The position numbers and the translations under genes are program-made. Source: Haladaptatus cibarius D43 (GTDB taxonomy: Archaea > Halobacteriota > Halobacteria > Halobacteriales > Haladaptataceae). From it: a DNA stretch of 64,000 bases. Below, piece after piece: positions 5,514 through 47,475 of this stretch. Under the pieces are notes generated by a model. That model was not told the origin of the DNA. It ran no database searches and worked only from the letters and a program-made list of their open reading frames with translations. Every line of letters starts with the position of its first letter. Within the stretch, counting starts at the first letter, position 1. Location of the stretch: NCBI RefSeq assembly GCF_000710615.1, contig NZ_JDTH01000002.1, positions 1,666,082-1,730,081 on the forward strand, given 5' to 3'.

Positions 5514-5532
5514 GTACAAGCCAGAAAGCATG

Positions 5533-5618
5533 AATTGCGTCACAGGCCCGGGTGGTGTAGTGGCCCATCATACAACCCTGTCACGGTTGTGACGCGGGTT
5601 CAAATCCCGCCTCGGGCG
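5533..5618 (+). repeat. 86-bp direct repeat, copy 1 (contains tRNA-Asp)
   Basis: Begins AATTGCGTCACAG and runs to the tRNA discriminator base; it is identical base for base to 6482-6567. The flanks differ immediately outside. Together the copies bracket 863 bp that holds one PD-(D/E)XK-type gene, as expected for duplication of a tRNA target or recombination between two tRNA copies. Confidence 0.95.
5546..5618 (+). tRNA. tRNA-Asp (GTC), copy 1
   Basis: 73-nt cloverleaf: 7-bp acceptor stem GCCCGGG/CTCGGGC with one G-U, anticodon arm CAACC-CTGTCAC-GGTTG giving anticodon GTC at 5580-5582, T-arm GCGGG-TTCAAAT-CCCGC, discriminator G. No intron and no encoded CCA. It is followed by a six-base T run, a likely terminator. 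Identical to the copy at 6495-6567. Confidence 0.97.
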
Positions 5619-5655
5619 TTTTTTCAACTTTCAAAACAGTGAGCGGTCAGCTTTG

Positions 5656-5812
5656 CCGAGCGTGACAAGGGAGCGAACGAGAGCAGGGAAGAACTTGTTT
5701 CTTTCCGTGCGAGCAGAACGTCTTGGCGTAGTTCAAATCTCGAAAGGCGCTCCATCTCTTTCGACCTTCGCGAATAAACTGCATTCGCTTGGTCCCACCT
5801 CGGGCGTTTTTG
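5656..5812 (+). repeat. tRNA-mimic repeat array downstream of tRNA-Asp copy 1
   Basis: A degenerate member of the tRNA-mimic family described at the tRNA-Phe, -Val and -Arg loci. GTGACAAG followed by a GAGCGA-type loop leads to GAACGTCTTGGCG and then a T-arm copy, AGTTCAAATCTCG (5717-5742). Next comes a small perfect hairpin, GCGAAT/ATTCGC (5770-5788), and a remnant of the tRNA 3' end, TCCCACCTCGGGCGTTTTT (5794-5812), which differs from the gene by one base and keeps the T run. Copy 2 of tRNA-Asp has no such array behind it. Confidence 0.6.
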
Positions 5813-5984
5813 ATGGATTTACTTGTTTGATGAGAGCTTGATTTCTTTCCGAGAACAGTACTAGAAAGCGACCACTTGGAAGCGGCATACCAAGGCTTGT
5901 GGAACCATAGTTGACTATTTTGCTACAAAAGACTATTTTTATAATAGCACATTCGACAGTAATAGCATAGAGGAGAGCGGCACG

Positions 5985-6392
5985 GTGAACACGAAAGACA
6001 AAGGTGATGAAACGGAGGCGAAAATAATTCACACGCTGATTTCTCACGGATACAGTGTTTCGATTCCGTTCGGAGACAACGACAAATATGATCTTATAGT
6101 AGATGACAATGGGTCACTCTATCGAGTCCAATGTGAGACAAGCTGGACGAACAAAGAGGGGACGATGCGATTCAATACACACACCCAGACTACAAAAGAG
6201 GGAAAATATCACGAAAATACGTATCACGGCGAAGTAGATGCCTTCCTCGTTCGGTACCCAAAAAACGAGAAACTCTATTGGATACAGATTGAGGAAGCGA
6301 CTGAGCAGAAAATGGAACTTCGATTCAACGCTAAAATAAATCACCCTTCGATTAACTGGGCAGAGGATTACGAGTTTGATGGAGAAATATAG
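5985..6392 (+). CDS. PD-(D/E)XK nuclease-like protein (group I intron-associated type)
   Basis: 135 residues matching from memory the PDDEXK_5 family common in haloarchaea: N-terminal KGDETEAKII helix, then YSVSIPFGDNDKYDLIVD with the catalytic aspartates, a strand YRVQCETSW, and a C-terminal INWAEDYEF. Family members normally read VQCKT, where the lysine completes the QxK active site; here it is glutamate, so nuclease activity may be lost. The GTG start has an unusually good Shine-Dalgarno (AGGAGAG, 5971-5977) and a TATA box TTTTTATAAT near 5934. Codon use is far more AT-rich than in neighbouring genes, and the gene sits between duplicated tRNA-Asp genes, so it is probably acquired. Biological role unknown. 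Confidence 0.8.
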   Translation: MNTKDKGDETEAKIIHTLISHGYSVSIPFGDNDKYDLIVDDNGSLYRVQCETSWTNKEGTMRFNTHTQTTKEGKYHENTYHGEVDAFLVRYPKNEKLYWIQIEEATEQKMELRFNAKINHPSINWAEDYEFDGEI

Positions 6393-6481
6393 GGGAGAAG
6401 ATGGCTTGTATCATGTTTATGGTATAGATTGCCAAAGGTGGTGTAAATCGACACCCCTTAATAATGGCGGGAGAAAGGAGT

Positions 6482-6567
6482 AATTGCGTCACAGGCCCGG
6501 GTGGTGTAGTGGCCCATCATACAACCCTGTCACGGTTGTGACGCGGGTTCAAATCCCGCCTCGGGCG
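6482..6567 (+). repeat. 86-bp direct repeat, copy 2 (contains tRNA-Asp)
   Basis: Exact match to 5533-5618; see copy 1. The left flank is unrelated apart from a TATA-like CCCTTAATA at a similar distance. The right flank keeps only CGCTTTTT. Confidence 0.95.
6495..6567 (+). tRNA. tRNA-Asp (GTC), copy 2
   Basis: Identical in all 73 bases to copy 1, anticodon GTC at 6529-6531, with its own TATA-like box and a following T run (TTTTT), so probably functional. The perfect identity implies recent duplication or gene conversion. Confidence 0.97.
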
Positions 6568-6750
6568 CTTTTTCCGAATTCACCTTCTAAAAGAGGCGTC
6601 TGTTGCTCCTACTTTCGCGTACTCCGATACTGAATGTCACGAGCGACCGCCCCAGCGAAAACACCTCGTGGCAGGCGAACAGTTCGTTTTTCCGAAGAAG
6701 TCAGTCCCGACGGATCCACGGGAAACGAGTCGAGAAACAGGAGGCGTGGG

Positions 6751-26484: not shown

Positions 26485-26679
26485 TTACAGGCGCGTGACG
26501 TTCGTCGCGCGCGGTCCTTTTGGTGCCTGTTCGATGTCGAATTCGATTTCCGTTCCCTCTTCGAGGTCTTCGCCGCCAACGTCTTCCATGTGGAAGAAAA
26601 CGTCCTCGTCCGCGTCCTCAGTCGAGATGAAACCGTAGCCGCCAGTGTCGTTGAAGAAATCAACTTTGCCTTTCGCCAT
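26485..26679 (-). CDS. cspA: Cold shock domain protein, copy 1
   Basis: 64 residues, a single five-stranded OB fold with RNP1 TGGYGFIS and RNP2 DVFFHMED. It binds single-stranded RNA/DNA and keeps mRNAs open. It differs from the copy at 26892 at only two residues (K5N, E25D). The minus-strand promoter TATTATCC lies about 33 bases upstream. A 7-bp inverted repeat CCATGGA/TCCATGG (26732-26751) lies further upstream. Confidence 0.95.
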   Translation of the reverse strand: MAKGKVDFFNDTGGYGFISTEDADEDVFFHMEDVGGEDLEEGTEIEFDIEQAPKGPRATNVTRL

Positions 26680-26861
26680 TGCTTTTGGATAAACTGGTGC
26701 CTCACGGATAATACTTCCGAGACAGGTTATACCATGGACGATGATCCATGGAACTCTCACCAGGCGGAATATTTCAGAATACCGTGCCACGCAAGCGATA
26801 CGCAGTACGCATCGCTACTCGGGGTAGAAAATATTCGACAGTAAAATCTTGATACGCTGTC

Positions 26862-26877
26862 GTCCGCGTTAGCGGAC
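26862..26877 (-). terminator. Hairpin terminator after cold-shock copy 2
   Basis: GTCCGC-GTTA-GCGGAC, perfect 6-bp stem with a tetraloop, 15 bases after the stop codon on the minus strand, followed some way on by a TTTTA stretch. Confidence 0.5.
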
Positions 26878-26891
26878 ACGTATTCCGAAAA

Positions 26892-27086
26892 TTACAGGCG
26901 CGTAACGTTCGTCGCGCGTGGTCCTTTTGGTGCCTGTTCGATGTCGAATTCGATTTCCGTTCCCTCTTCGAGGTCCTCGCCGCCAACGTCTTCCATGTGG
27001 AAGAAAACGTCGTCGTCCGCGTCCTCAGTCGAAATGAAACCGTAGCCGCCTGTGTCGTTGAAGAAATCAACGTTACCTTTTGCCAT
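26892..27086 (-). CDS. cspA: Cold shock domain protein, copy 2
   Basis: 64 residues, nearly identical to the gene 213 bases away, including synonymous positions, so the pair is a recent tandem duplication or is kept alike by gene conversion. The promoter differs in detail (CCTTATCC about 33 bases upstream) and the two have separate intergenic regions, so they may respond differently. The 224 bases beyond (27087-27310) show no gene. Confidence 0.95.
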   Translation of the reverse strand: MAKGNVDFFNDTGGYGFISTEDADDDVFFHMEDVGGEDLEEGTEIEFDIEQAPKGPRATNVTRL

Positions 27087-27310
27087 TGCTTCTGAACAGA
27101 ATGCCTTGTACCGGATAAGGCTTGGGAAATCGTTGTCCTCGTTTCGAATTCAGTTGATGATTTTTCGAAATCATCCCATATTCTATACGGACGGCCGCTA
27201 TTTTGGATTTCAATACGGTTCGTCATCGAATCGGTCGATAATTCGGCTCGGAACTACTGTCATCGACAGTTCCATTTTGGTACATCGGGGTGAAGAGTTC
27301 AAGAAAGCAG

Positions 27311-29603: not shown

Positions 29604-29879
29604 ACAGAAATGCCGCCTCCCGGATTTGAACAACGTCCGAGAACCTACTCTTCGCGCAGAACCTCGGTCTAATTAAAATTCGCTCGGATTCCATATCTGT
29701 TGCTCACGATGTTGTTCGCAACAGAAATGCCGCCTCCCGGATTTGAACCTCGCCAAGACGTTCCGGGATGCTCGCTCCGCTGCGCTTCCGGGCTGCGACT
29801 TGTCTGATTCAAATCGCAGTCGGGTCGCAGATTCACGGCTGACGGCTCACTCGCTACGCTCGTTCGTGTTGTCAGCCGT
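29604..29879 (-). repeat. tRNA-mimic repeat array downstream of tRNA-Phe
   Basis: Two 28-base direct repeats (29604-29631, 29721-29748) start ACAGAAATGCC and contain the last 21 bases of tRNA-Phe. In order away from the tRNA: a perfect 9-bp hairpin ACGGCTGAC/GTCAGCCGT (29835-29879); a unit (29728-29818) whose outer arms are GATTTGAA and TTCAAATC with the shared core AACGTCTTGGCG and CAGACAAGTCGCA on the minus strand; a perfect 7-bp hairpin CTGTTGC/GCAACAG (29697-29724); and a degenerate unit (29611-29690). 29389-29603 has no convincing gene. Confidence 0.75.
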
Positions 29880-29886
29880 AGAATCA

Positions 29887-29960
29887 TGCCGCCTCCCGGA
29901 TTTGAACCGGGGACAGCTCGATCTTCAGTCGAGTGCTCTCCCAGTCTGAGCTAAGGCGGC
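29887..29960 (-). tRNA. tRNA-Phe (GAA)
   Basis: 74-nt cloverleaf read on the minus strand: acceptor GCCGCCT/AGGCGGC, D-arm GCTC/GAGC, anticodon arm CTCGA-CTGAAGA-TCGAG (anticodon GAA), T-arm CCCGG-TTCAAAT-CCGGG, discriminator A. No intron, no encoded CCA. Its 3' half is copied twice downstream. Confidence 0.97.
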
Positions 29961-33381: not shown

Positions 33382-33439
33382 ATAGGGAAGCGAGCAGGTG
33401 ACTCGCTCCGCTCGTCACCTTGCATCGCGCAGAATTTCA

Positions 33440-33702
33440 TGGGTTCGGGTGGATTCGAACCACGCCAAGACGTTTCGGGTCGCTCACTACGTTCGCTCCC
33501 GGGGGTGCGACTTGTCTGGTTCAATCGCCCTCGGAACAGTTTTGTGACTCACGAAGAAGTTCGTCGCAAAACAGTGGGTTCGGGCGGATTCGAACCACGT
33601 CCAGACGTACTCACTTCGTTCCGTGCGTCTGGCCTACCTCGAACCGCCCGAACGCTTCCTTTTCGTGGCACGAGGTTCGCTTCGCTCACCGTGATGTGCC
33701 AC
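33440..33702 (-). repeat. tRNA-mimic repeat array downstream of tRNA-Val
   Basis: The clearest array. Away from the tRNA: a 7-bp perfect hairpin GTGGCAC/GTGCCAC (33665-33702); unit b (33575-33653) whose outer arms GTTCGGGCGG and CCGCCCGAAC pair perfectly and whose inner stem is CCAGACG/CGTCTGG; a hairpin GTTTTGTGAC/GTCGCAAAAC (33538-33573, 9 of 10 pairs); and unit c (33440-33530) with core CAGACAAGTCGCA and AAACGTCTTGGCG on the minus strand. Both units contain 22 bases matching the 3' end of tRNA-Val (one mismatch in unit c). Confidence 0.8.
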
Positions 33703-33712
33703 AAAAATCCAG

Positions 33713-33786
33713 TGGGTTCGGGCGGATTCGAACCACCGACCTCGGCCTTGTAAAGGCCGCGTCATAACCAACTAGACCACGAACCC
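33713..33786 (-). tRNA. tRNA-Val (TAC)
   Basis: 74-nt cloverleaf on the minus strand: acceptor GGGTTCG/CGAACCC, anticodon arm CGGCC-TTTACAA-GGCCG (anticodon TAC), T-arm closing around GGTTCGAATCC, discriminator A. No intron. Its 3' 22 bases recur twice downstream. Confidence 0.97.
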
Positions 33787-47315: not shown

Positions 47316-47475
47316 GGAGCACGAACGAAAGTGAGTGCTCCAACGAAGATTTGAACTGGCGAGACGTTCCTGCTCAGTCGCATACGCTCCTTCCGCGGGC
47401 GTGCGTCTCGCTAGCTCAAATCTCCGCGAGTCGTCATCTTCCTCCATGATCCGAGAGAGGCGTCGGCTCTCTCGG
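47316..47475 (-). repeat. tRNA-mimic repeat array downstream of tRNA-Arg
   Basis: Away from the tRNA: a 9-bp perfect hairpin CCGAGAGAG/CTCTCTCGG (47451-47475); a unit (47345-47425) with arms GAAGATTTGAACTGGCGAGACG and its near mirror CGTCTCGCTAGCTCAAATCTCC, giving a stem of about 22 bp whose GCGAGACG/CGTCTCGC core is close to perfect; then a 7-bp perfect hairpin GGAGCAC/GTGCTCC (47316-47341). A more degenerate piece (near 47260-47310) may be a second unit. The arm copies the tRNA-Arg T-arm. Confidence 0.7.

What the first reader, a model, noticed from the sequence alone, without database searches (positions are those of the whole stretch)
33440..33712. A repeat family that copies tRNA T-arm/acceptor sequence behind tRNA genes
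At four of five tRNA genes in the window (Phe, Val, Arg, first Asp) the downstream DNA alternates plain hairpins with palindromic units. Units at different loci share a core (RAACGTCTTGGCG on the 3' side, CAGACAAGTCGCA on the 5' side) but their outer arm equals the T-arm, and at Phe and Val the acceptor 3' end, of the local tRNA. In Val unit b the acceptor copy GTTCGGGCGG even has its own perfect mirror CCGCCCGAAC. Transcribed, this would fold as a tRNA minihelix. I know no described element with this behaviour. Origin could be repeated integration at tRNA 3' ends, gene conversion, or a functional decoy or RNase Z/processing element.
Basis: partly seen in the sequence, partly recalled or inferred. 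Interest (0 to 1): 0.85.

Follow-up and report, generated by a model that had tools for sequence, protein, structure and literature searches.

The report
Palindromic inserts copying tRNA gene ends
In salt-loving archaea, many tRNA genes are followed by short, hairpin-forming repeats, each of which ends in a copy of the last 20-21 bases of that very tRNA gene; they look like a family of tiny mobile inserts that settle at tRNA 3' ends without damaging the tRNA, and I found no published description of them.

Summary
In the Haladaptatus-type genome around it, 15 of 44 tRNA genes have a copy of their own last 21 nt within 400 nt downstream (cross-isotype control 7 of 1806). A covariance model of the units hits 34 of 40 related genomes; nearly every inspected hit lies just downstream of a tRNA, same strand. 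In 100 units the copy matches the local tRNA's acceptor end at 94% (other isotypes 50%); the 5' arm follows the local tRNA more weakly. Hairpin pairing is supported by covariation. Near-identical cores sit behind different tRNAs in different species, each with the local tail, and decayed copies exist. Best reading: a miniature, non-autonomous palindromic element inserted at the tRNA 3' end with duplication of tRNA positions 53/54-73, then amplified or lost by recombination between the repeats. Cas1/casposase and Y1 transposase are absent from element-rich genomes; the enzyme is unknown. An RNA function is not excluded.

The parts
33713..33733 (-). 3' tail of tRNA-Val(tac), positions 53-73: the sequence that is duplicated
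33659..33712 (-). plain hairpin 1 behind tRNA-Val
33638..33653 (-). 5' arm of Val unit b: reverse complement of T-loop plus 10 nt of the acceptor end (GTTCGGGCGGTTCGAG)
33596..33637 (-). core hairpin of Val unit b
   Evidence: (model hit, window 33587-33645)
33575..33595 (-). exact 21-nt copy of the tRNA-Val tail (end of unit b)
33537..33574 (-). plain hairpin 2
33520..33530 (-). 5' arm of Val unit c (rc T-loop/T-stem)
33461..33519 (-). core hairpin of Val unit c (class A core)
   Evidence: (model hit, window 33452-33527)
33440..33460 (-). 21-nt copy of the tRNA-Val tail, one mismatch (end of unit c)
33394..33439 (-). original trailer of tRNA-Val; in two related species it directly follows the tRNA
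29887..29907 (-). 3' tail of tRNA-Phe
29830..29886 (-). plain hairpin 1 behind tRNA-Phe
29749..29815 (-). Phe unit b: 5' arm (29808-29815) and core (29749-29807), class A
29728..29748 (-). exact 21-nt copy of the tRNA-Phe tail
29696..29727 (-). plain hairpin 2 behind tRNA-Phe
29632..29681 (-). Phe unit c: 5' arm and core, class C (TTAGACCGAGGTTCTG...)
29611..29631 (-). second exact 21-nt copy of the tRNA-Phe tail
47357..47426 (-). Arg unit: 5' arm CGGAGATTTGAG (47415-47426) and core
47336..47356 (-). degenerate copy of the tRNA-Arg(gcg) tail
5715..5739 (+). 3' half of a decayed unit behind the first tRNA-Asp
5791..5806 (+). remnant of the tRNA-Asp tail (14-nt match with one mismatch)

Best explanation
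A family of miniature, non-coding, palindromic mobile elements of haloarchaea that insert at the 3' end of tRNA genes. SHOWN: each unit reads plain hairpin - inverted T-loop arm - core hairpin - direct copy of tRNA positions 53/54 to 73. Units come in arrays of one to several behind about a third of the tRNA genes of this genome. Presence or absence at orthologous tRNAs is exact at the repeat boundaries, the cores recur at different tRNAs with the local tail, and some copies are decayed. INFERRED: insertion involves a staggered break with one strand opened in the T-loop (53/54) and the other at the mature 3' end (73/74). Gap repair then duplicates the 20-21 bp between, so the tRNA stays intact and a spare copy is left on the far side, as in CRISPR-repeat or casposon target duplication. 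Recombination between the identical tails afterwards multiplies units in tandem or deletes them cleanly. The recombinase is unknown; a tyrosine recombinase acting on a folded hairpin is possible.
For: tRNA association of whole-genome model hits and of 17 of 17 haloarchaeal exact pattern hits. Copy matches the local tRNA at 94% against 50% for other isotypes, 86 of 100 at 11/12 or better. Empty sites at tRNA-Val in G005 and G006; G006 lacks exactly unit 1 of this genome at tRNA-Leu(tag). Near-identical cores at different tRNAs in different species: G010 Arg / G020 Lys 0.93, G004 Leu / G005 Phe 0.95, G018 Gly / G004 Leu 0.88 (alignment scores), each with its local tail; same-genome, other-tRNA nearest neighbours 17 against 9.1 expected. 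Decayed copies at G008 tRNA-Leu. Hairpin conserved by covariation: 180 double-change cells against 56 in shuffles. No match to any Rfam family other than tRNA above its cut-off.
Against: The inverted 5' arm also follows the local tRNA (mean percentile 0.81 among tails of other isotypes), which a plain target-site duplication does not explain. No terminal inverted repeats bound the whole insert (plain hairpin plus core). No enzyme is linked to it. Only one genome per species was available, so no transposition event was seen between strains. At tRNA-Val, plain hairpins and cores have been exchanged independently of each other. Conserved pairing could equally reflect an RNA function.
Confidence: 0.58

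Rival explanations
1. A functional trailer RNA: the units are transcribed with the tRNA, and the tail copy and its mirror arm act in cis, for example as an alternative or decoy 3' end for RNase Z or as a switch (the mirror arm can pair with the tRNA's own tail upstream or with the copy downstream).
For: Covarying hairpin; the tail (20 nt) pairs with the mirror-arm end of the segment behind it in predicted folds more than with a shuffled middle (0.72 against 0.51 of tail bases); some units are shared by orthologous tRNAs across species with identical tails.
Against: About two thirds of the tRNAs in this genome have no recognisable copy; orthologous tRNAs lack units in close relatives; copies decay; cores are of several unrelated classes; transcription was not testable.
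Confidence: 0.2
2. No dedicated mobile element: the arrays arise by template switching at palindromes (tandem inversion duplication) and unequal recombination between tails, and spread between species by homologous recombination at the conserved tRNA genes.
For: The 5' arm is an inverted local copy; in G004 tRNA-Val the plain hairpin's left arm resembles the original trailer and its right arm the reverse complement (by eye); identical tandem units exist (L122, L288); orthologous cores are enriched (28 against 4.6 expected).
Against: Near-identical cores at tRNAs of different isotypes and genera with local tails need movement of the core. Outside near-identical tandem units, the 16 nt after the tails are barely more alike within a locus than between loci (0.36 against 0.32), so the duplicated block usually ends at the tRNA 3' end.
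Confidence: 0.16
3. Relics (attR sites) of ordinary tRNA-targeting integrative elements whose interiors were deleted.
For: Classical islands exist at the same tRNAs, for example at tRNA-Glu(ctc) of this genome (L194) and at tRNA-Leu in G017 (L192); tyrosine recombinases are near-universal in these genomes.
Against: The classical island at tRNA-Glu repeats about 43 nt from near the anticodon, and the unit sits intact beyond that repeat; the units always start the repeat at 53/54. Shared core hairpins at tRNAs with different tails are not expected of deletion relics.
Confidence: 0.06

Closest known systems
Casposons, family 2 (Cas1-type casposase; PMC6614799)
   Same: Insert at or next to the 3' end of a tRNA gene and duplicate a short target there; the A. 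boonei casposase reads TCAAATC, a T-loop-like motif, upstream of the duplicated segment.
   Different: Duplication is 14-15 bp, against 20-21 here; casposons carry genes and TIRs; Cas1 is absent from many element-rich genomes, such as G003, G005, G010 and G011.
SMR-A small mobile repeats and PATEs of Haloquadratum walsbyi (PMC3119063)
   Same: About 110 bp, non-coding, haloarchaeal, aimed at palindromes, mobilisation unexplained.
   Different: SMRs have terminal inverted repeats, make no target duplication and target IS605-type ends, not tRNAs. Sequences were not compared.
E. coli tyrT downstream repeats / rtT RNA (from memory)
   Same: Tandem repeats behind a tRNA gene, each containing a copy of the tRNA 3' end.
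   Different: A single tRNA operon in enterobacteria, about 178 bp units; no Rfam match to it here.
REP / RAYT palindromes (PMC3733652)
   Same: Short imperfect palindromes with unpaired positions, non-autonomous.
   Different: Dispersed in intergenic DNA, not tRNA-bound; no consistent GTAG tag here; Y1 transposase absent from this genome and from G004, G010 and G011.
Classical integrative elements at tRNA genes
   Same: Leave a partial tRNA copy downstream.
   Different: Kilobases long; the copy at tRNA-Glu of this genome is about 43 nt, against 20-21 here.

Membership tests
Casposon (family 2) | Insertion at tRNA 3' end with target duplication | tested here: met
   Tail duplicated, exact empty sites; but 20-21 nt rather than 14-15
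Casposon (family 2) | Cas1-family integrase available in the genome | tested here: not met
   Cas1 in 11 of 40 genomes; absent from G003, G005, G010 and G011, which have 18-31 model hits
Casposon (family 2) | Terminal inverted repeats bounding the insert | tested here: inconclusive
   Core palindromic, but plain hairpin plus core is not bounded by an obvious inverted repeat (by eye)
REP/RAYT or IS200/IS605-derived element (PATE) | Y1 transposase in the genome | tested here: not met
   No PF01797 match in G000, G004, G010, G011 despite 18-35 model hits each
REP/RAYT or IS200/IS605-derived element (PATE) | Imperfect palindrome with conserved unpaired base | tested here: met
   One helix-2 pair is unpaired (mostly T-T) in 64 of 107 units while its neighbours pair
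SMR-A small mobile repeat | No target duplication | tested here: not met
   20-21 nt of the tRNA are duplicated
SMR-A small mobile repeat | Sequence similarity to HqIRS42/43/55 | not tested
   Element sequences not at hand
MITE | Non-coding, short, repeated, presence/absence at orthologous sites | tested here: met
MITE | Ends shared with an autonomous transposon | not tested
   No autonomous partner was found; no systematic search for one was made
rtT / tyrT repeat | Match to Rfam rtT model | tested here: not met
   Only tRNA above cut-off in nine loci
Classical tRNA integrative element | Integrase gene within the element | tested here: not met
   Units are about 110-160 bp including the plain hairpin, too short to carry an integrase gene

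The most novel reading that the evidence does not exclude
Haloarchaea have a dedicated, undescribed recombination system that treats any tRNA gene as a 'leader plus repeat'. It inserts palindromic cassettes behind the tRNA, copies the local tRNA tail in direct orientation and partly also inverted, and so builds CRISPR-like arrays behind tRNA genes, with cassettes exchanged between tRNAs and species.
Probability: 0.28. Interest if true: 0.92.

Novelty: new variant of a known kind. Interest (0 to 1): 0.76.

Why it matters
tRNA genes are the classic landing sites of mobile DNA, but described cases are mostly large elements with one partial tRNA copy. Here a short non-coding element has settled behind about a third of the tRNA genes of one genome, and in 13 of 19 genera sampled among its relatives, with a boundary set by the T-loop and the mature 3' end. 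If insertion is confirmed, it gives a tractable archaeal system for how a recombinase reads any tRNA and spares it, and a comparison for casposon and CRISPR repeat duplication. The copies could also mislead tRNA annotation and be mistaken for integration scars. If an RNA role is found instead, tRNA trailers would carry a structured element that matches no Rfam family in the loci scanned here.

Tried and rejected
1. Core motif search with mismatches in the window: no clear excess over chance; only the combined motif or the covariance model is specific.

2. Known RNA family: Rfam at E up to 1 on nine loci gives only tRNA above cut-off.

3. Kink-turn or bulge-helix-bulge reading of the internal loop (GA opposite GCG): considered by eye; the needed G-A pairs are not present, dropped.

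4. Casposase/Cas1 as present-day driver: absent from many element-rich genomes. Y1 (IS200/REP) transposase: likewise absent. Tyrosine recombinases are present in 39 of 40 genomes, so they are compatible but uninformative.

5. Tandem inversion duplication as the general mechanism: predicted that the start of the trailer is duplicated with the tail; outside near-identical tandem units it is not (0.36 against 0.32). It may hold at single loci such as G004 tRNA-Val.

6. Units carried by viruses: exact pattern in IMG/VR gave 0 matches.

7. Hits apparently without a tRNA: L190 and L192 are explained by islands of about 3 and 1.4 kb between tRNA and unit, L191 by a tRNA-Glu whose sequence is visible but was misread by ARAGORN, L193 by an inverted core.

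8. Literature: eight searches of the open-access library found no description of such repeats; subscription papers were not searched.

Full report
WHAT WAS CHECKED. The window is a stretch of a 3.93 Mb haloarchaeal genome. Behind tRNA-Val(tac), minus strand, the last 21 nt of the tRNA recur at 33575-33595 (exact) and 33440-33460 (one mismatch); tRNA-Phe has two exact copies. Arg and the first Asp have decayed versions.

MORE THAN CHANCE. I collected the 44 tRNA genes found by Rfam RF00005 and searched 400 nt downstream of each for its own last 21 nt: 15 of 44 have a copy. The same search with tails of other isotypes gives 7 of 1806; upstream gives 1, a tandem tRNA-Gly pair. The copy runs from G53/T54 (the G and TTC that open the T-loop region) to the discriminator base, without CCA.

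ANATOMY. After each tRNA: a pyrimidine-rich start and a plain hairpin; an inverted copy of the T-loop and some bases beyond; a core hairpin; then the direct copy; then the next plain hairpin, and so on. Arrays reach four units in L117 and five in L288. The core comes in classes: A (AGACnAGnCGCA...AACGTCTnGGCG), B (CCTGCAAG...), C (AGACCGAGGTTCTG...), a few D, and many that fit none of these strings exactly. The plain hairpins often contain GAAC...GTGA or GTGA...GAAC, which would form tandem G-A pairs (my reading of the sequence).

STRUCTURE. On 17 units of this genome the proposed hairpin has 82% of cells paired, 36 double changes against 13 in shuffles, and far more pairing than slid versions. 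On 107 units from many genomes, which were aligned by the model and so lean towards it, it has 180 double changes against 56 in shuffles. One pair of helix 2 is mostly a mismatch (64 of 107) while its neighbours pair, a feature reminiscent of hairpins recognised as single-stranded DNA (inference).

GENOME-WIDE TEST OF THE REFUTERS. Covariance model R1 finds 18-20 hits in this genome, 0-35 in each of 39 relatives, and hits in 34 of 40 genomes. In an even draw over the phylum, all 29 genomes with hits belong to the same order; no genome outside the order had one. I fetched 80 regions, 77 of them from other genomes. Of 104 hits examined, 100 had a same-strand tRNA call upstream that could be compared, usually 24-300 nt away. 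The apparent exceptions were explained: a tRNA about 3 kb away with ORFs between (L190), an island with a TFIIB-family gene (L192), a tRNA-Glu visible in the sequence but misread by ARAGORN (L191), and one core in inverted orientation behind tRNA-Ser (L193). An independent exact-pattern scan of 84,980 species gave 18 stretches: 17 haloarchaeal, all behind tRNAs and 12 of them with a near-exact local tail (the other five diverge near the end), and one bacterial MAG match without a tRNA, probably chance.

ARMS FOLLOW THE LOCAL tRNA. Over 100 units the 12 acceptor-side bases of the copy are 94% identical to the local tRNA and 50% to other isotypes; 86% against 0.8% reach 11 of 12. The 5' arm beyond the T-loop also follows the local tRNA, with small deletions (mean percentile 0.81). 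The A/G choice at T-loop position 57 is mirrored by Y in the 5' arm.

THE CORE ALONE. A core-only model R2 was searched over ten genomes. All 14 previously unexamined hits with E up to 1.3e-7 that I fetched are near tRNAs; of 26 weaker loci fetched, 11 are not. Those 11 carry the innermost module (AGTCGCAYGCCCG...GGAACGTCT) inside other palindromes, several of them with similar flanks. So the outer T-loop frame is tRNA-specific and the inner module is not.

GAIN AND LOSS. At tRNA-Val(tac), H. litoreus (G005) and H. pallidirubidus (G006) have the tRNA tail directly followed by TGAAATT..., the very sequence that in this genome follows the second unit. At tRNA-Leu(tag), G006 lacks exactly unit 1 of this genome, and G008 has decayed copies. 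G001, G003 and G007 share the plain hairpin behind tRNA-Val but have different cores; G001 and G004 share the core but have different plain hairpins. Among 121 cores the nearest relative is at the same tRNA in another genome 28 times (4.6 expected), at another tRNA of the same genome 17 times (9.1 expected), and otherwise at another tRNA in another genome. Several of these last pairs score 0.88-0.95, each with its own local tail. So units are inherited for a while, and cores also move between tRNAs.

MECHANISM. I favour insertion with duplication of the 20-21 bp between T-loop and mature 3' end, followed by tandem multiplication and clean deletion through the repeats. Shown: boundaries, empty sites, recurrence of cores at different tRNAs, decay. 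Inferred: direction (gain), staggered cut, gap repair, enzyme. Not explained by a plain target duplication: the inverted 5' arm that follows the local tRNA. Template switching at the palindrome, or extension of both ends of a palindromic intermediate on the tRNA tail, could give it; the general form of that idea predicts duplication of the trailer start, which is not seen outside near-identical tandem units (0.36 against 0.32).

ENZYME. Cas1 and Y1 transposase are each absent from genomes with 18 or more units. Tyrosine recombinases are in 39 of 40 genomes, so they remain possible but unproven.

KNOWN RELATIVES. The casposase of A. boonei reads TCAAATC and duplicates 14-15 bp next to tRNA-Pro: the same kind of site, another size and enzyme. 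Haloquadratum SMR-A elements are similar in size and enigmatic in mobility but make no target duplication and target IS605-type palindromes. E. coli tyrT repeats (from memory) are the closest architectural parallel. Classical integration at tRNA-Glu of this genome repeats about 43 nt, and the small unit lies beyond it, so the two processes differ. I therefore rate the family a new variant of a known kind, with a real chance of being more than that.

LIMITS. One genome per species, no transcript data, literature limited to open access, CM alignments lean towards the model, and the gain/loss direction was not mapped on a tree.

Noticed in passing
window 5523-6574: tRNA-Asp(gtc) is present twice (103-nt repeat including upstream bases, 96% identical), with a PD-(D/E)XK endonuclease-family gene (PF11645, 5985-6392) between the copies; only the first copy carries a (decayed) unit.
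   Followed up: partly
L194 (G000:C2:1015000-1023000): An island of about 5.8 kb sits in tRNA-Glu(ctc) with a partial tRNA copy of about 43 nt at its far end; the small unit lies just beyond that copy. Genes include a TrmB-like regulator; no integrase was recognised among the five ORFs tested.
   Followed up: partly
L192 3018-4433: An island of about 1.4 kb encoding a TFIIB-family transcription factor lies between tRNA-Leu(tag) and a longer partial tRNA-Leu copy followed by a unit (G017).
   Followed up: partly
L190 2950-6183: About 3 kb with ORFs lacking Pfam matches separates tRNA-Val(tac) and its first unit from another unit that ends in the same tail (G004).
   Followed up: partly
L301, L313, L317, L319, L321, L322: A dispersed non-tRNA repeat: the inner core module followed by a similar flank (near CTTTTGGTCCAGATTTTGC), apparently intergenic, several copies per genome.
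   Followed up: no
L193 2676-2752: One unit core in inverted orientation behind tRNA-Ser(gga), still with a local-tail-like arm on the far side (G026).
   Followed up: no
L122, L126, L131, L168, L187: Some tail copies have an extra base within the T-loop (for example GTTCAACATCC), possibly marking a junction.
   Followed up: no
window 26485-27123: Two direct repeats of 232 nt, 90% identical, starting 407 nt apart.
   Followed up: no
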